Source of the DNA: an uncultured Caryophanales bacterium
Lineage (GTDB): Bacteria > Bacillota_I > Bacilli_A > RF39 > UBA660
Direction: 5' to 3'
Length of the DNA: 64,000 bases
Assembly (NCBI GenBank): GCA_947571655.1
Contig: CANOYR010000007.1
Coordinates: 1 to 64,000 of the forward strand
A program made the position numbers and the translations under genes. Under the pieces are notes generated by a model. That model worked only from the letters and a program-made list of their open reading frames with translations, had not been told where the DNA came from and searched no databases. How positions within the stretch are numbered: position 1 is the first letter of the stretch; the number at the start of each line of letters is the position of its first letter. Shown piece after piece: positions 46,174-53,736 of the stretch.

Positions 46174-46737
46174 TTTTTAATACCATTCAAGATGACATAG
46201 ATCTAAAACCTGCTTACTTGCTAAGTATAATTGATATATGTTTTAATACCATTCAAGATGACATAGATCTAAAACTATCACGAAGCGTAGCTGTTGCACT
46301 AAATGGTTTTAATACCATTCAAGATGACATAGATCTAAAACCTGCTTACTTGCTAAGTATAATTGATATATGTTTTAATACCATTCAAGATGACATAGAT
46401 CTAAAACTATCACGAAGCGTAGCTGTTGCACTAAATGGTTTTAATACCATTCAAGATGACATAGATCTAAAACCTGTGATTTCTATAAAAATAATCACTA
46501 CAAGTTTTAATACCATTCAAGATGACATAGATCTAAAACGTGTTATCATAATAACTATTCTTTTCTTTTGTTTTAATACCATTCAAGATGACATAGATCT
46601 AAAACCATTTGTCATTTCTAGCGCAACACAAATTTGTTTTAATACCATTCAAGATGACATAGATCTAAAACAAAATGAAATAGATAATGCAAACAAAAAC
46701 CGTTTTAATACCATTCAAGATGACATAGATCTAAAAC
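46174..46737 (-). CRISPR. Type II-A CRISPR array: nine 36-bp repeats, eight 30-bp spacers
   Basis: Repeats start at 46174, 46240, 46306, 46372, 46438, 46504, 46570, 46636 and 46702; all are 36 bp and every spacer is 30 bp. Repeats are identical except for the first base at 46174 (T for G). Read on the minus strand the repeat begins GTTTTAGATCTATG and contains TTGAATGG, as in streptococcal type II-A repeats, so the array is transcribed leftward with cas genes. The leader-proximal end is therefore 46737 and the altered repeat is the leader-distal terminal one. Spacers at 46210-46239 and 46276-46305 recur exactly at 46342-46371 and 46408-46437, so there are six different spacers. Confidence 0.98.
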
Positions 46738-47493: not shown

Positions 47494-47810
47494 AAAACCA
47501 CTAACCTATCTTCACTATTTATAATTTTACTATCATGATGACCAATGATATATTCAATTTGTGAATATTGTTTTTCTGTAATTGTCAAGACTTGTATCAA
47601 TCCTTTTTTTGGAGATTTTTTTCTAAGTCTATCAATTAACAAACTTGCTTGCTGAGAATTGAGCACAATTTTAGAATATACTGACTCCTGCATCATAATA
47701 AATCCCTCATTTAAAAGAAATCTTCTGAATAATACATAGTTTCTTTTATCTACTGCATAAATATTTGGTAAATCAAAAAATACAATTGTTCTCATAACTC
47801 TATCCCTCAT
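47490..47810 (-). CDS. cas2: CRISPR-associated endonuclease Cas2
   Basis: A 106-residue Cas2: MRTIVFFDLPNIYAVDKRNYV with the conserved Asp at the end of strand 1, then YVLFRRFLLNEGFIMMQESVYSKIVLN, as in streptococcal type II-A Cas2. The ATG at 47810 (MRDRVMRTIVFF) is selected as the family start; a longer frame exists upstream inside cas1. It overlaps cas1 by 11 bp and csn2 by 4 bp. With Cas1 it forms the spacer integration complex. Confidence 0.95.
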   Translation of the reverse strand: MRDRVMRTIVFFDLPNIYAVDKRNYVLFRRFLLNEGFIMMQESVYSKIVLNSQQASLLIDRLRKKSPKKGLIQVLTITEKQYSQIEYIIGHHDSKIINSEDRLVVL

Positions 47811-48672
47811 AATAAAAGAACCCCTTATAGTTTTCAATATCATTCATAGATTCTAAAGTATTTTTAACATACAACTTTATAATATCCTTTAAAGTATACT
47901 TCTTATTTTGATACTTAAATGTATTATTAAAAATATTTATCAAATCCAATTTATACTCTGTATTTAATTCTCTTTTTTGATTATAATAAACAAAATTATC
48001 TATGATTACTCGAAATGGTTCCATTAAATCACAAGTTAGATTAAATTGATTAAATTCATTCTTATGATGAATTCCAAGTTGTGTTAAAAAACCACTAGCG
48101 ATTACTTCCTTATTAAAAGTAGATAATAATATTGCATAACCATAATTAAGAGCTGAATTAATAGAATCACCACAATTTCTAACAAAATTCTTACCAAACA
48201 ATGCTTTAAAGTAGACTTTAGCTGCATGCCCTTCCCTATTAGTCTGATCACCAATAGTTACATCATCTACATAACTAAGAAGTAAATCATATTGTTTCGA
48301 AGAAATTTTATTTAATAAAATAGTTTGATTCATAATTTTATTTTTCACTATCTTAGTCCATAACTCATCCTTTTTCTCTTGTTCCCACGCTATTTGAATG
48401 TTAATTTTCTTGGTTGTATTATGCCTTGAATAATAAGAGGACAATTCACCAAACGGATGATGCTTTTCATCACAAAAAATAATATTTATTTTATAATTAG
48501 ATAATTCCTTTAATAAATAGGAAGAAATAGATACCGAAATAGAATCTACTATAACAGTATCTATTTCCGACAAATGAATATATTTCTCCCCATTTTCTTG
48601 TTTAACTACTAAAAATCTATTTTTATAACTTATTTTTGACTGTTTTGTAATTACAACGGTTCTAAAACTCAT
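47800..48672 (-). CDS. cas1: CRISPR integrase Cas1 (type II-A)
   Basis: A 290-residue Cas1 beginning MSFRTVVITKQSKISYKNRFLVV, typical of type II Cas1. Expected metal ligands are visible: Glu in REGHAAKVYFKALFG, His in LTQLGIHHKNEFNQF and Asp in LTCDLMEPFR. It catalyses spacer integration at the leader end. The ATG at 48672 follows a GGGAAAG site in the end of cas9, with which it overlaps by 11 bp. Confidence 0.97.
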   Translation of the reverse strand: MSFRTVVITKQSKISYKNRFLVVKQENGEKYIHLSEIDTVIVDSISVSISSYLLKELSNYKINIIFCDEKHHPFGELSSYYSRHNTTKKINIQIAWEQEKKDELWTKIVKNKIMNQTILLNKISSKQYDLLLSYVDDVTIGDQTNREGHAAKVYFKALFGKNFVRNCGDSINSALNYGYAILLSTFNKEVIASGFLTQLGIHHKNEFNQFNLTCDLMEPFRVIIDNFVYYNQKRELNTEYKLDLINIFNNTFKYQNKKYTLKDIIKLYVKNTLESMNDIENYKGFFYYEG

Positions 48673-51600
48673 ATACACTTTCCCTAATTCCTGTGATTGA
48701 TTTATTAAAAACTTTAGCATGATTAATCACTCTTTGATTTTTTCTTCCGAAAGCAGTAGAATATTTACTATTTAAGAATTTAAAATTTGCTGTAGTACTT
48801 CTACAATTTAATAACTTAAAGAGCTCTTTTATAGACTGTTCTTTTTCTTCTATCGATAACATTTCTGGATAATCATAGCAAACTATATTCTTCAAATTTA
48901 GGATTAGATTTTGATATAACGAATACTCCTTTTCCATCTTATCTACTATATATCTAATCAGTTCTCCAAGATTTTTTTCATATTCCTCTTCATTTAGAGT
49001 GTCCATTCTATTTTTTACATTAAATACTTGATTTAATGTATATTTGAATCTTTTCATACTATTTTTATCAAATTTAAATTGTTTAGCATTACATACCTCA
49101 ATAGTATCTGCTGCACCTACCAAATAACAAATTTGACCATCCCAATCTATCAAACTTAAGAAAGGAATTTTTCTATCATCGAACTCTAAAACATCATTTT
49201 CATTCAGTTTCAATAAATCACGTATATAATTCGATTGAATAGATAAATCACTCTTTGAACTTTCTATAATATAAATTGGCATTCCAATGAAACGTTGTTC
49301 TTTCTTTCCCCTTTTAGTATATTTCACAAATACCGCATATGCTGGATTCAGACTTGTATAAGAACCATATAATTTTGTTGGTAAGTTTTTCTTTAAGCAA
49401 ACTCCTGGTAAATTCTTTTTATTCTTCGTTTGATTATAAAATTCTCCTGTTCTAATCTCTGTTTTTCTACTAATTAAAATATCATTTCTATATAAAGTAT
49501 CTTCTACTCGCTTATTAAAACCCTCTGCGTCAAATGATAATTCCCCTACTTCCTTATTAGATTCACTTAAAATCATAGATTTTAAAACCTTATTCATAGA
49601 ATAATCCAAACTATTAATTACATATCCATATTTTAATTTATTATAATCCTTTTGCTCAAGTAATTTTTTATTTAATTCCTTTAGCATTTCAAAATTTACT
49701 TTTTTTCTTAAATATTTTTCTTTATATTCACCTAAAACCGCAGCTAAATAAGCATCATGTGCATGATGATAATCGTTAATCTCTCTAAATTTAAATAAAT
49801 CAAATCGTTTACGATAATTATGAGATAAATTAACAGGCAAATATAAAATCTTTGACTTATTATAATAATTGCCTAAAATACTAGCAACATGCTTCGTAAT
49901 TTGCCTAGTTTCTACTAATTGTCGATTAATAAAACCATCAATATCTTCTGTCTTATATTGCTTCCGTATTAAATTATAATATTTTTTTTGCGACATCAAA
50001 TTAATACTTTTTAAATGCTGCCACCATTTAATATTTATTTCTGTTCGATACTTACTAGGAAGAATGTAACTTGCAGCTTTGATTTGATTTTCCTCACGGT
50101 AAACCAAAGCTTTATTATCTATAGAGTCATCTTTAATTAAAGTTCTTGGAATAATATGATCAATCTCATAAGAATCTAAATCTTCAATATTCAATGGTCT
50201 TCCAGAATACAAACTTTTTCCTTCTTGAATAAAATATAAAAACAACTTTTGACTATCAATTTTTTCGAATTCACCTAATTCTTTCATCAACTGATAATAA
50301 TCATGAATACTATCTTTTTCCTTTTCATATAACTTAGTTAAATACTTCTTTTTATCATCTCTTCTTTCCTTTTTGGCACCCCCTCTTGCCATCTCTATCA
50401 TGATTGCCTGTGGTTGCATTCCCATAAATTTTACAATCTCTTCAACTACTTTTAAAGCCTGATAAATTCCCCTTTTTATAGAAGGTGATGTTACTAAATT
50501 TTCAACAAAACTATAATCAATTTTCTTTGTAGTGTCCACTTTATTATAATCACTAATCATTTTTTGAAAATGATAATCTTCATTGTTTATAATTTGCATG
50601 AAATTATCCTTCGTTTCTGTCATTAAGTCCATAATTGATTTAGGAATCCCACTTTCCTTCTCCACATAATACTTTGTCATCAATAACCTTTTAGATAAAT
50701 TTCCCCAACCATGATACTTCTTAGCAATAATCTTTTTTATTTGTATTTCATTTAATTTTGAATATTTCTTTCTAATTTTAGTTTCTAAAATATCTTTATC
50801 CTCAAATATTGTTATCCATTCAATAATTTCTTCTGCATTTTCTTCATTGTAAATTGTACCATCAAAAATTCCATTTTCTCCAAAGAAGTCTACATAAGAT
50901 TGCATCGTATTCGCAAACTTTCCATCTGCAGAATATCCAGTAACACTAATATCTCCCTGATACATCGTTACTTCTTTTGAAGCATACAGATATTCTTTAA
51001 ATTTTTTATCAGTAATACCTCCACTGACTTTCATAAACAATTCTTTTAAAATTTTCTGCTGAAAATTATTAGTTAATCTCTCACCATTCACTTTAATCTG
51101 CTTTAATTCATTCATAACTTTATATTTTGAATATAAAATAGAATGGTTAGGCATTGCAGATTCCTCCAATAAATAGGTACAATGAGAAATCATTCTTTTA
51201 ATGAATTTTTCTGCAGTTGCTTCTTTATCTACAATTTTATCAAAGTTATATGGAGTAATTCTTTCTATATTATTTTTTCTTATCATCCAAGCAAAATTAC
51301 TATGAGTTTCATCAGTAAGTGGTCCAACATAATAGGGAACCTTAAACTCCAATAACTTCACAAGTTTATAAGTTCCATCCTCCAATTTATCTAATAGAAA
51401 TGGATAATACTTACCTTGATTCTCAATAATTTTAATTAATTCATCTTTATTCAATTGGTAAGGATACTTTCCATTTTCTGTATCAGTAATTCTTGGAAGA
51501 AATTCTCCATTTTCCATACGATTCTTTACTTCTAATTCATAAGTATCTAAGAGTTCTCTATCTCCACTCTTATCAAAAATTTCAGGTAAGTACTTTTGAA

Positions 51601-52717
51601 TTTCTTTGATAAATTCATCATTACTAATCTTATTTTTGATATATTTTTCATAAATGCAAGAGTCTTTTTTACTTCTGAAAATCTTATTATAAATTTTTCG
51701 ATTAATCTGAAATAAATCTTTTAAGAACCTTAAATCTTGTTCATGAGTAACATACTTTTCTACCATCAATGAAGAAAGGCTTATACTTTTGCTCCCATGA
51801 AAGAGTTTTTTTAAAAAAATCATATCATAAAGCTGTTTCATTGCAGTAAGAATTTCCATATGCTCCCCCAAAATAGATTCAAAAACCACATATTTTTCTT
51901 CATAGTCTGTCCCATCAAAGCTTAGTTCAATTTTGCTCTCTTCCACTTCTAAATTTAACATCTTTATGAAATTAAATTTATTTCCATTCACTAATTTTAT
52001 AAATTCATTGATAAAACTTTTTGGAAATAAATTCTTAAGAATCTTTTGGAGTTCTTCTTTTCTCTTAGCTTTAGAAGATTCTAGCAATAGTTCTGTAAAT
52101 TTCTTAATATCCAAATAATTATCATAATCTTCTGAACATCCTAAAAAAGAACAAAGATTAGTAATTGAATTCAAAACGATTTTGACCTGCTCATTTAAAT
52201 CTAAGTTTTCAATATTAAATCCATCAACATGATAAAGAAAATTACCACGATATTTAATCATATGATGAAGTGCTAAATATACAAGTCTAATATCTTGCTT
52301 ATTAGAACTCGTTATTAATTCTTTTCTAAGATGATAAATTGTCTTATACCTTTTATGATACGCTTTTATTTCCTCTTTTTCCCTTTTTGTTAATAAAACA
52401 GTTTTATTATTTTTATCACTTTCGTGATAAAAAGATTCTTTCAATTTAATAAAAAAAGTAGAGTCAGTCTTATCAATTTCTGTCATAAATTCTTCTTGTA
52501 ATAGTCTAATTCGTCCTCTTCTTCTATCATAGCGTCTTCGTATACTTCTAAAAGCTCTTCTTTCTTCTGCAGTATTTGCTTCCTCAAACAGACGAACACC
52601 CCATAATGCTTGATTTCCTTTTCTAAAAATCTTTTGACTCTCACTCTCTACCACCGCCCAACCGACAGAGGTAGTTCCTATATCAAGACCAATATTATAT
52701 TTTTTATTATTTTTCAT
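48662..52717 (-). CDS. cas9: CRISPR-associated endonuclease Cas9 (type II-A)
   Basis: A 1351-residue Cas9. RuvC-I is YNIGLDIGTTSVGWAVVES with Asp12; an Arg-rich bridge helix follows (RRAFRSIRRRYDRRRGRIRL). RuvC-II has Glu775 in IMIEMARGG; the HNH domain has His854 in YEIDHIIPRTLIKDDSIDN; RuvC-III has His985 and Asp988 in DYHHAHDAYLAAVLG. All catalytic residues are intact. The C-terminus ends NKSITGIRESVYEF, matching the end of streptococcal Cas9, but the DRKRYTS stretch before it is FGRKNQR. The ATG at 52717 follows AGGAGG (52725-52730 region); the open frame upstream to 52765 is not conserved and runs into the tracrRNA gene. Confidence 0.98.
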   Translation of the reverse strand: MKNNKKYNIGLDIGTTSVGWAVVESESQKIFRKGNQALWGVRLFEEANTAEERRAFRSIRRRYDRRRGRIRLLQEEFMTEIDKTDSTFFIKLKESFYHESDKNNKTVLLTKREKEEIKAYHKRYKTIYHLRKELITSSNKQDIRLVYLALHHMIKYRGNFLYHVDGFNIENLDLNEQVKIVLNSITNLCSFLGCSEDYDNYLDIKKFTELLLESSKAKRKEELQKILKNLFPKSFINEFIKLVNGNKFNFIKMLNLEVEESKIELSFDGTDYEEKYVVFESILGEHMEILTAMKQLYDMIFLKKLFHGSKSISLSSLMVEKYVTHEQDLRFLKDLFQINRKIYNKIFRSKKDSCIYEKYIKNKISNDEFIKEIQKYLPEIFDKSGDRELLDTYELEVKNRMENGEFLPRITDTENGKYPYQLNKDELIKIIENQGKYYPFLLDKLEDGTYKLVKLLEFKVPYYVGPLTDETHSNFAWMIRKNNIERITPYNFDKIVDKEATAEKFIKRMISHCTYLLEESAMPNHSILYSKYKVMNELKQIKVNGERLTNNFQQKILKELFMKVSGGITDKKFKEYLYASKEVTMYQGDISVTGYSADGKFANTMQSYVDFFGENGIFDGTIYNEENAEEIIEWITIFEDKDILETKIRKKYSKLNEIQIKKIIAKKYHGWGNLSKRLLMTKYYVEKESGIPKSIMDLMTETKDNFMQIINNEDYHFQKMISDYNKVDTTKKIDYSFVENLVTSPSIKRGIYQALKVVEEIVKFMGMQPQAIMIEMARGGAKKERRDDKKKYLTKLYEKEKDSIHDYYQLMKELGEFEKIDSQKLFLYFIQEGKSLYSGRPLNIEDLDSYEIDHIIPRTLIKDDSIDNKALVYREENQIKAASYILPSKYRTEINIKWWQHLKSINLMSQKKYYNLIRKQYKTEDIDGFINRQLVETRQITKHVASILGNYYNKSKILYLPVNLSHNYRKRFDLFKFREINDYHHAHDAYLAAVLGEYKEKYLRKKVNFEMLKELNKKLLEQKDYNKLKYGYVINSLDYSMNKVLKSMILSESNKEVGELSFDAEGFNKRVEDTLYRNDILISRKTEIRTGEFYNQTKNKKNLPGVCLKKNLPTKLYGSYTSLNPAYAVFVKYTKRGKKEQRFIGMPIYIIESSKSDLSIQSNYIRDLLKLNENDVLEFDDRKIPFLSLIDWDGQICYLVGAADTIEVCNAKQFKFDKNSMKRFKYTLNQVFNVKNRMDTLNEEEYEKNLGELIRYIVDKMEKEYSLYQNLILNLKNIVCYDYPEMLSIEEKEQSIKELFKLLNCRSTTANFKFLNSKYSTAFGRKNQRVINHAKVFNKSITGIRESVYEF

Positions 52718-52746
52718 TGACACACCTCCTACTACTATGTTACTAT
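52717..52746 (+). promoter_or_regulatory. tracrRNA promoter overlapping the cas9 start codon
   Basis: TTGACA at 52717-52722 and an extended -10 TGTTACTAT (52738-52746), spacer 18 bp. The -35 shares its first base with the cas9 ATG, and the cas9 ribosome site lies in the spacer. Transcription is predicted to start near 52753, right at the anti-repeat. Confidence 0.75.
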
Positions 52747-52752
52747 GAAATT

Positions 52753-52842
52753 GTCTTAATACCATTTAAGATGACATAGAGAGTTAAAATAAAGGTTTTA
52801 CCCTAAATACTCTTCTGAGTTGCTGCTTAGGCAGCTTTTTTT
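52753..52842 (+). ncRNA. tracrRNA
   Basis: The segment 52756-52781 is complementary to the crRNA repeat over about 25 bp with one G-U wobble (T instead of C at 52767). A GAGT bulge opposite GA and a lower TAAAAT stem (52784-52790) follow, the same repeat:anti-repeat architecture as in Streptococcus pyogenes. Then come a nexus hairpin (GG-TTTTA-CC region, 52794-52802), a hairpin ACTC-TTCT-GAGT (52809-52820) and a terminator GCTGC-TTAG-GCAGC plus seven T (52822-52842). The 5' end is inferred from the promoter. tracrRNA pairs with pre-crRNA for RNase III processing and is needed for Cas9 activity. Confidence 0.93.
52822..52842 (+). terminator. tracrRNA terminator
   Basis: GCTGC (52822-52826), TTAG loop, GCAGC (52831-52835), T7 (52836-52842). 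Confidence 0.95.
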
Positions 52843-52868
52843 ATGCCAACCATGGAACTTATAAGGTG

Positions 52869-52898
52869 AGTGTACCATAATTGTTAAATAATAGGCAA
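52869..52898 (-). promoter_or_regulatory. Candidate cas9 operon promoter
   Basis: On the minus strand TTGCCT (52898-52893), 18-bp spacer, TGG-TACACT (-10 at 52874-52869). If used, the cas9 mRNA leader would run antisense through the whole tracrRNA gene. Moderate match only. Confidence 0.4.
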
Positions 52899-52934
52899 CA
52901 AAATATTGGAAAATTTTGGTAATATTTAAAAAAG

Positions 52935-52967
52935 AAAAAGGACTTCATATAATCCTGAAGTCCTTTT
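52935..52967 (-). terminator. Terminator of the HTH gene
   Basis: AAAAAGGACTTC (52935-52946) pairs perfectly with GAAGTCCTTTTT (52957-52968 region); on the minus strand it is followed by T residues and lies directly after the stop codon. Confidence 0.88.
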
Positions 52968-52968
52968 T

Positions 52969-53736
52969 CTATACCTTTCTAGATTGAATTTCTGCAATTT
53001 TATCCAATACTTCTTTTGCATTCTCATTATTGATTTCAGTATATCCTAATTCTTTCAACGCCTGTACCTTAGCAGTATTTAATTCTTGAGTACGAGATAA
53101 TCTTTCTTCTTTTTTATGTTCAATTTCCTGAACAAAACGCTTATGCGTATCTGCAATTTTTGATCGAGAAGCTCCCCCATTCGTATATAAAGTCATTGCC
53201 GAAAATAAAATGCTTTCAAATATAAATTGTTGATTTTCATTAAACACATACTCTGTATGATCAATAAATCCCATAGATTTTGACATATAACCTAAGATAT
53301 ATTTCAATTCTTTATTTGTTTCCATTGACTGAAGAAAATGATAAAGATAACGGTAACTATGATAGGTATCCTTTGTTTTATCATCTGCAAGCTTTTCTTT
53401 TAACAAATTAATAATATCTGTTAATAATTCTTGTTCTTTTTTATTAAATCCTTTTAAATCAGCAAGAATTTCCTTTCCTGAAGATTCTTTAACCCCATCA
53501 TTCAAACGATTTTCTACCTGAATAATATATTCTCCATCTACCTTAATTGCTGAAATATCCTCTACCTGCTGAACCCCAAGAAGACATAATATTTTCATTG
53601 CCTTTTCTTTTGGCCACTCTTTTAAATTCTCCTGTGCTAAATAATTATATAGCATCTGCCTTGAAACGCCAAGATATTTTGCCAATCTTACTTTAGAGAT
53701 TCCTAACTCCCCTAACAAGTCATTCAAATTCTTCAT
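52969..53736 (-). CDS. Helix-turn-helix regulator-like protein next to cas9
   Basis: A 255-residue protein with an N-terminal HTH (LNDLLGELGISKVRLAKYLGVSRQMLYNYLAQ, residues 4-35) of Cro/CI-like type and a long helical C-terminal part without a known ligand domain. It starts at ATG behind AGGAGG, with its own promoter (53758-53785). It ends 127 bp from the tracrRNA terminator. It could regulate the CRISPR locus or be a housekeeping neighbour; the sequence does not tell. It is too large for a typical Aca protein. Confidence 0.75.
   Translation of the reverse strand: MKNLNDLLGELGISKVRLAKYLGVSRQMLYNYLAQENLKEWPKEKAMKILCLLGVQQVEDISAIKVDGEYIIQVENRLNDGVKESSGKEILADLKGFNKKEQELLTDIINLLKEKLADDKTKDTYHSYRYLYHFLQSMETNKELKYILGYMSKSMGFIDHTEYVFNENQQFIFESILFSAMTLYTNGGASRSKIADTHKRFVQEIEHKKEERLSRTQELNTAKVQALKELGYTEINNENAKEVLDKIAEIQSRKV

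What the first reader, a model, noticed from the sequence alone, without database searches (positions are those of the whole stretch)
52717..52898. tracrRNA promoter overlaps the cas9 start; cas9 mRNA may be antisense to tracrRNA
The tracrRNA -35 begins on the cas9 ATG and its spacer holds the cas9 ribosome site, leaving only 36 bp between the cas9 start and the tracrRNA start. No good cas9 promoter fits in that gap. The best candidate lies beyond the tracrRNA terminator (52869-52898), so the cas9 leader would be fully complementary to tracrRNA. This could couple cas9 and tracrRNA levels by promoter interference, antisense pairing or RNase III cleavage of the cas9 leader, a built-in feedback different from the long tracrRNA repression known in Streptococcus pyogenes.
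Basis: partly seen in the sequence, partly recalled or inferred. Interest (0 to 1): 0.7.

Follow-up and report, generated by a model that had tools for sequence, protein, structure and literature searches.

The report
tracrRNA promoter nested in cas9 ribosome site
In this gut bacterium and dozens of relatives, the switch that makes Cas9's partner RNA (tracrRNA) is folded into the DNA just in front of the cas9 gene, so the cas9 message almost certainly starts on the far side of tracrRNA and carries its full mirror image, which could tie the levels of the two together.

Summary
[quoted passage not shown] The tracrRNA -35 (TTGACA, 52717-52722, +) starts on the cas9 ATG, and its 18-nt spacer contains the cas9 Shine-Dalgarno (52725-52730). 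In the window alone the promoter matches are no better than chance (6 found, 5.4 expected). Comparison decides it. In 72 of 99 non-redundant loci from Bacilli and Clostridia, the tracrRNA -35 lies within -2..+8 of the cas9 start, with conservation concentrated in the -35, the TG and the -10. An extended -10 on the cas9 strand lies just beyond the tracrRNA terminator in 57 of 71 such loci (16.6+-3.5 expected), and there is no enrichment inside the tracrRNA gene in the window's family. In about 16 loci the beyond-terminator element is a promoter-plus-hairpin that elsewhere sits directly in front of other, often defence-like, genes. The cas9 leader is therefore very probably antisense to all of tracrRNA. 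Regulatory coupling is plausible but untested: the cas9 ribosome site lies outside the duplex. The antisense layout has an experimental precedent, the S. agalactiae P2cas promoter. New here is the nested, deeply conserved arrangement without a proximal cas9 promoter.

The parts
48662..52717 (-). cas9 (1351 aa); ATG at 52717-52715
   Evidence: TIGR01865, 795 bits; translation
52725..52730 (-). cas9 Shine-Dalgarno AGGAGG, lying inside the tracrRNA promoter spacer
   Evidence: sequence
52717..52722 (+). tracrRNA -35 TTGACA, overlapping the A of the cas9 ATG
   Evidence: conserved in 72 of 99 loci
52738..52746 (+). tracrRNA extended -10, TG-T-TACTAT
   Evidence: conserved
52753..52841 (+). tracrRNA (predicted start about 52753); anti-repeat 52753-52788
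   Evidence: Rfam RF02348 35.2 bits, sub-threshold; repeat copy; pairing with the repeat -38.5 kcal/mol
52817..52841 (+). tracrRNA intrinsic terminator (stem plus T-run)
52869..52898 (-). predicted cas9 promoter Pcas: TTGCCT (52898-52893), spacer 18, TGG-TACACT (52877-52869)
   Evidence: score 11.4, z 2.7; coordinates; same position in the sister locus L011 and class-wide enrichment
52718..52862 (-). predicted cas9 leader, about 145 nt, complementary to the whole tracrRNA
   Evidence: inferred from Pcas; predicted duplex of 90 pairs, -154.6 kcal/mol
52933..52970 (-). terminator of the upstream gene, which brackets Pcas between 52717 and 52933
52969..53736 (-). upstream gene, weak HTH-type protein
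   Evidence: ORF; sub-threshold Pfam HTH hits
47800..48720 (-). cas1
   Evidence: TIGR03639, 310 bits
47490..47843 (-). cas2
   Evidence: TIGR01573, 66 bits
46813..47493 (-). csn2 (type II-A marker)
   Evidence: TIGR01866, 108 bits
46175..46737 (-). CRISPR array, nine 36-nt repeats (crRNA strand GTTTTAGATCTATGTCATCTTGAATGGTATTAAAAC)

Best explanation
[quoted passage not shown] The cas9 mRNA leader therefore contains the exact antisense of tracrRNA. Shown by sequence and comparison: the nesting, its deep conservation, and a conserved cas9-strand promoter beyond the terminator with none detectable in the gap. Inferred, most likely mechanism: polymerase from Pcas runs head-on through the tracrRNA gene and over its promoter, and the two RNAs form an approximately 90-bp duplex that RNase III can cut about 35 nt or more upstream of the cas9 start. 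cas9 transcription would then lower free tracrRNA, and tracrRNA transcription would impede or trim the cas9 leader, while the cas9 ribosome site stays free. My estimates: about 0.9 for the promoter layout, about 0.5 for a measurable effect of one unit on the other, about 0.3 that coupling is what selection maintains.
For: In 72 of 99 non-redundant loci the tracrRNA -35 lies within -2..+8 of the cas9 start (84 TTGAC exact, 68 extended TG). Anchored on the -35 (54 loci), information is 1.61 bits per base in the -35 and 1.39 in the TG, against 0.29 in the flank and 0.44 in the SD-complement part. The overlap layout occurs in all main branches of the sampled Cas9 tree with 8 changes (shuffled mean 17.3). 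Extended -10 on the cas9 strand within 130 nt beyond the terminator: 57 of 71 loci against 16.6+-3.5 in shuffles and 17 on the other strand; window family 38 of 46 against 11.1+-2.8; inside the tracrRNA gene or gap in that family 5 against 5.9. Full promoter score z beyond +1.31 (se 0.16), inside -0.01 (se 0.10). In loci with a clearly spaced tracrRNA, 0 of 5 have the element beyond the terminator. Independent support: in about 16 loci the element is a promoter plus hairpin that elsewhere lies 50-93 nt before the next ORF, but 170-212 nt before cas9, a difference about the size of the tracrRNA unit. The upstream gene in the window has its own terminator.
Against: There is no RNA data; all start sites are predictions. 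Most loci are metagenome assemblies. In taxa outside the window's family an extended -10 also occurs inside the tracrRNA gene (17 of 25 against 3.8), though by my reading that stretch is the anti-repeat, whose sequence is fixed by the repeat. The ribosome site lies outside the duplex, so antisense pairing has no obvious direct effect on translation. The window's own Pcas is moderate (TTGCCT/TACACT).
Confidence: 0.6

Rival explanations
1. Same layout, but only compaction: tracrRNA promoter, cas9 ribosome site and Pcas are packed together and the antisense overlap has little regulatory effect.
For: Window-family genomes are small and AT-rich (G000 about 1.3 Mb). The Shine-Dalgarno lies outside the duplex. 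Several loci have lost the exact overlap and sit 17-30 nt further upstream without other obvious change.
Against: The overlap is also kept in Clostridia and in genomes of 2-3 Mb, and it fixes a -35 between SD and start that neither gene needs there. It is conserved over Cas9 proteins that share under 40% identity with the window's family.
Confidence: 0.35
2. cas9 is transcribed from a promoter inside the tracrRNA gene or the 36-bp gap, for example a divergent start at a symmetrical -10 of the tracrRNA promoter, so the leader is short.
For: In taxa outside the window family an extended -10 occurs inside in 17 of 25 loci against 3.8 expected. An in-frame ATG at 52765 exists.
Against: In the window family there is no enrichment inside (5 against 5.9), z -0.01 over 71 loci, and 4.2 bits in the window. 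The internal matches appear to coincide with the anti-repeat, and the 52765 ATG also derives from it and has no Shine-Dalgarno.
Confidence: 0.08
3. cas9 is co-transcribed with the upstream gene rather than having its own promoter.
For: The nearest upstream ORF is on the cas9 strand in 44 of 55 loci checked.
Against: In the window that gene ends in a strong terminator. 11 of 55 upstream ORFs are divergent, and the beyond-terminator promoter is strongly enriched. Even if true, the leader would still be antisense to tracrRNA.
Confidence: 0.05
4. Feedback by a long tracrRNA acting as a natural single guide on Pcas, as in S. pyogenes.
For: It is the known autoregulation of type II-A systems (PMC11417352).
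Against: No repeat-like stretch 5' of the anti-repeat (score 14, shuffled mean 16). The promoter places the tracrRNA start at the anti-repeat itself, and no array spacer matches the region at the threshold used.
Confidence: 0.03

Closest known systems
S. agalactiae P2cas distal cas promoter at the 3' end of tracrRNA (PMC12216829) with the short antisense RNA there (PMC4448216)
   Same: A cas promoter at the tracrRNA 3' end gives cas mRNA antisense to tracrRNA and suffices for immunity where P1cas is deleted.
   Different: There the tracrRNA-cas9 region is 280-389 bp, a proximal P1cas is usual and P2cas is under CovR. Here there is no room for a proximal promoter and the tracrRNA -35 lies between the cas9 SD and start.
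S. pyogenes type II-A tracr-L autorepression of Pcas (Workman 2021, as described in PMC11417352 and PMC12216829)
   Same: tracrRNA lies antisense upstream of cas9; both link tracrRNA and cas9 expression.
   Different: No tracr-L-like 5' extension here; Pcas lies on the other side of tracrRNA.
Listeria monocytogenes type II-A locus (NZ_LR134400.1, locus L213)
   Same: tracrRNA antisense, its promoter-like elements only about 25-30 nt from the cas9 start (read by eye).
   Different: There the -35 lies upstream of the SD instead of between SD and start.
Overlapping convergent transcription and antisense leaders in bacteria in general (own knowledge)
   Same: Promoter occlusion, polymerase collision and RNase III processing are established outcomes of this geometry.
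   Different: Not established, to my knowledge, as the default organisation of Cas9 systems.

Membership tests
Type II-A CRISPR-Cas | cas9, cas1, cas2 and csn2 in one operon | tested here: met
   TIGR01865, TIGR03639, TIGR01573, TIGR01866
Type II-A CRISPR-Cas | 36-nt repeat array and tracrRNA with matching anti-repeat | tested here: met
   array; pairing -38.5 kcal/mol
S. pyogenes-type tracr-L autoregulation | 5' extension of tracrRNA with a repeat-like stretch and guide matching Pcas | tested here: not met
   best repeat-like stretch below shuffled mean
S. agalactiae P2cas-type distal promoter | cas-strand promoter at the tracrRNA 3' end | tested here: met
   predicted from sequence, window and class-wide
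S. agalactiae P2cas-type distal promoter | measured cas transcription from it | not testable with these tools
   no RNA data
S. agalactiae P2cas-type distal promoter | repression by CovR | not tested
   regulator binding was not examined
Antisense/convergent control of cas9 by tracrRNA | reciprocal effect of the two transcription units | not testable with these tools
   requires promoter mutants and RNA measurements

The most novel reading that the evidence does not exclude
The nested tracrRNA promoter and cas9 ribosome site, with Pcas beyond tracrRNA, is an ancient, selected reciprocal control circuit of type II-A systems. It sets cas9:tracrRNA stoichiometry by collision and antisense processing without any guide-directed repression. 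In part of the family the cas9 promoter is a shared promoter-plus-terminator leader used by several defence genes.
Probability: 0.25. Interest if true: 0.75.

Novelty: new variant of a known kind. Interest (0 to 1): 0.55.

Why it matters
How bacteria keep Cas9 in check is an open question, answered so far mainly by tracr-L repression in streptococci. If most type II-A loci in these Bacilli and many in Clostridia transcribe cas9 through tracrRNA in antisense, then cas9 and tracrRNA cannot be expressed independently. That is directly testable, for example in a Bacillus subtilis reporter, and it would affect how such loci are cloned: moving or deleting tracrRNA, or swapping the cas9 promoter, changes both units at once.

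Tried and rejected
Window-only promoter statistics are not significant (6 sites, 5.4 expected), so comparison was used instead. The first genome-contig scan with one protein found nothing; the alignment query worked. A viral scan for the repeat found nothing. tracr-L/natural sgRNA: rejected. Spacer self-targeting of the promoter region: no match at the threshold used. The leader hairpin was at first taken to be CRISPR-specific because its core motif occurred only near cas9 in the genomes first searched; the covariance model then hit 111 of 386 family genomes at many places, so that reading was dropped. A GACATAGAGA stretch before the hairpin in a few loci looked like an anti-repeat fragment, but it is not conserved. 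Literature searches for the cas9/tracrRNA overlap found only the S. agalactiae precedent; the library lacks most subscription papers.

Full report
What is there. [quoted passage not shown] tracrRNA lies on the plus strand directly upstream of cas9 (52753-52841). Rfam's tracrRNA model matches below its cut-off (35.2 of 70 bits), but the anti-repeat pairs with the array repeat (-38.5 kcal/mol) and a terminator follows.

The overlap. The tracrRNA -35, TTGACA 52717-52722, begins on the A of the cas9 ATG. The cas9 Shine-Dalgarno AGGAGG (52725-52730) lies in the 18-nt spacer, and the -10 is TG-T-TACTAT (52738-52746). Only 36 bp separate the cas9 start from the predicted tracrRNA start. In the window alone such promoter matches are no more frequent than in shuffled sequence (6 against 5.4+-2.5), so I turned to relatives.

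Conservation. Searches of the genus, family, order, class and phylum of the window genome and of named genomes gave 99 non-redundant loci with an antisense tracrRNA upstream of cas9. In 72 the tracrRNA -35 lies within -2..+8 of the cas9 start, in most of them between SD and start; 84 of the 99 have TTGAC exactly and 68 an extended TG. Anchored on the -35, information is concentrated in the -35 (1.61 bits per base), TG (1.39) and -10 (0.87), against 0.29-0.51 elsewhere. The layout occurs in Mycoplasmatota-like Bacilli, in larger-genome Bacilli families and in Clostridia. On a Cas9 tree it needs 8 changes (shuffled mean 17.3). Where the -35 is elsewhere (17-30 nt upstream, or 44-190 nt in some Lachnospiraceae and others) the GTCAA between SD and start is missing in the loci I read, a built-in contrast.

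Where cas9 is transcribed from. In the window the best cas9-strand promoter between the cas9 start and the tracrRNA terminator scores 4.2 bits (z -0.1). The sister locus L011 has one at the same distance. Over 71 overlap-layout loci an extended -10 on the cas9 strand lies within 130 nt beyond the terminator in 57, against 16.6+-3.5 in shuffles and 17 on the other strand. In the window's family it is 38 of 46 against 11.1+-2.8, with no enrichment inside the tracrRNA gene (5 against 5.9). Full promoter scores agree (z +1.31 beyond, -0.01 inside). Outside the family there is an internal enrichment (17 of 25 against 3.8), but by my reading it falls on the anti-repeat, whose letters are set by the repeat. 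The upstream gene in the window has its own terminator (52933-52970), which brackets Pcas.

An independent argument. In about 16 family loci, though not in the window, the beyond-terminator element is an extended -10 followed by a conserved hairpin with a T-run. Its covariance model finds the same element in 111 of 386 family genomes. In a sample of 28 loci it is usually preceded by a TGnTATAAT-like element and lies 50-93 nt before the next non-cas9 ORF, among them PD-T4-6-type kinases and PDC-S06-type ATPases, and also a class of secreted cysteine-rich proteins. In front of cas9 the distance is 170-212 nt, longer by about the length of the tracrRNA unit. This is what one expects if the promoter beyond tracrRNA is the real cas9 promoter and tracrRNA sits inside the cas9 leader. 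Terminator-like hairpins on the cas9 strand there occur in 26 of 84 loci against 3 in shuffles and 10 on the other strand, so in part of the family cas9 transcription may also be attenuated.

How it most likely works. The cas9 mRNA leader (about 145 nt in the window) is complementary to all of tracrRNA (90 pairs, -154.6 kcal/mol). From established knowledge of convergent transcription and RNase III, the likely consequences are occlusion of the tracrRNA promoter by polymerase from Pcas, head-on collision, and RNase III cutting of the duplex, leaving a cas9 mRNA with an intact ribosome site, since the duplex stops about 23 nt upstream of the SD. Net effect: cas9 transcription costs tracrRNA, and tracrRNA transcription hinders cas9 transcription. 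None of this is shown; a purely passive, compact layout is the main rival.

Comparison with the known. S. pyogenes tracr-L feedback needs a 5'-extended tracrRNA that mimics a guide; nothing like it is found here. The closest known case is S. agalactiae. [quoted passage not shown] So antisense cas9 transcription through tracrRNA is documented; the nested promoter/ribosome site, its breadth and the lack of any proximal promoter are not described in the papers I could search.

Verdict. Observation confirmed and much extended; interpretation partly supported. A new variant of a known kind, of moderate to good interest, whose regulatory meaning awaits RNA data.

Noticed in passing
L053, L056, L060, L069, L075, L084, L097, L101 and others upstream of cas9; L217-L246 elsewhere: A conserved promoter-plus-hairpin-terminator leader element (5' arm AAAGGGCTAGTACAGACTTTAT, covarying stem, T-run; model R1) occurs in 111 of 386 family genomes, up to 7 copies per genome, shortly before genes that include cas9, PD-T4-6-like kinases, PDC-S06-like ATPases, PHP/AAA proteins and secreted cysteine-rich proteins. 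Possibly a shared attenuator of a defence regulon; no hit in the window genome.
   Followed up: partly
window 46205-46437: Two spacers in the array are present twice in the order A-B-A-B, a tandem duplication of two repeat-spacer units.
   Followed up: no
G000:C13:19501-19734 (L006, L007): A second, short array with the same repeat lies on another contig of the same genome.
   Followed up: no
window 52765: The cas9 reading frame is open for 16 more codons to an ATG inside the anti-repeat complement; it has no Shine-Dalgarno, is probably not used, and could mislead automatic gene calls.
   Followed up: partly
G275 (Candidatus Pelethosoma merdigallinarum, L075 and L098): This genome carries two different type II-A cas9 loci, each with the nested tracrRNA promoter and the leader hairpin.
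   Followed up: partly
window 52969-53736: The gene upstream of cas9 encodes a weakly HTH-like protein; the same 3' end appears to lie upstream of cas9 in the relative L011, so it may be a conserved neighbour.
   Followed up: partly
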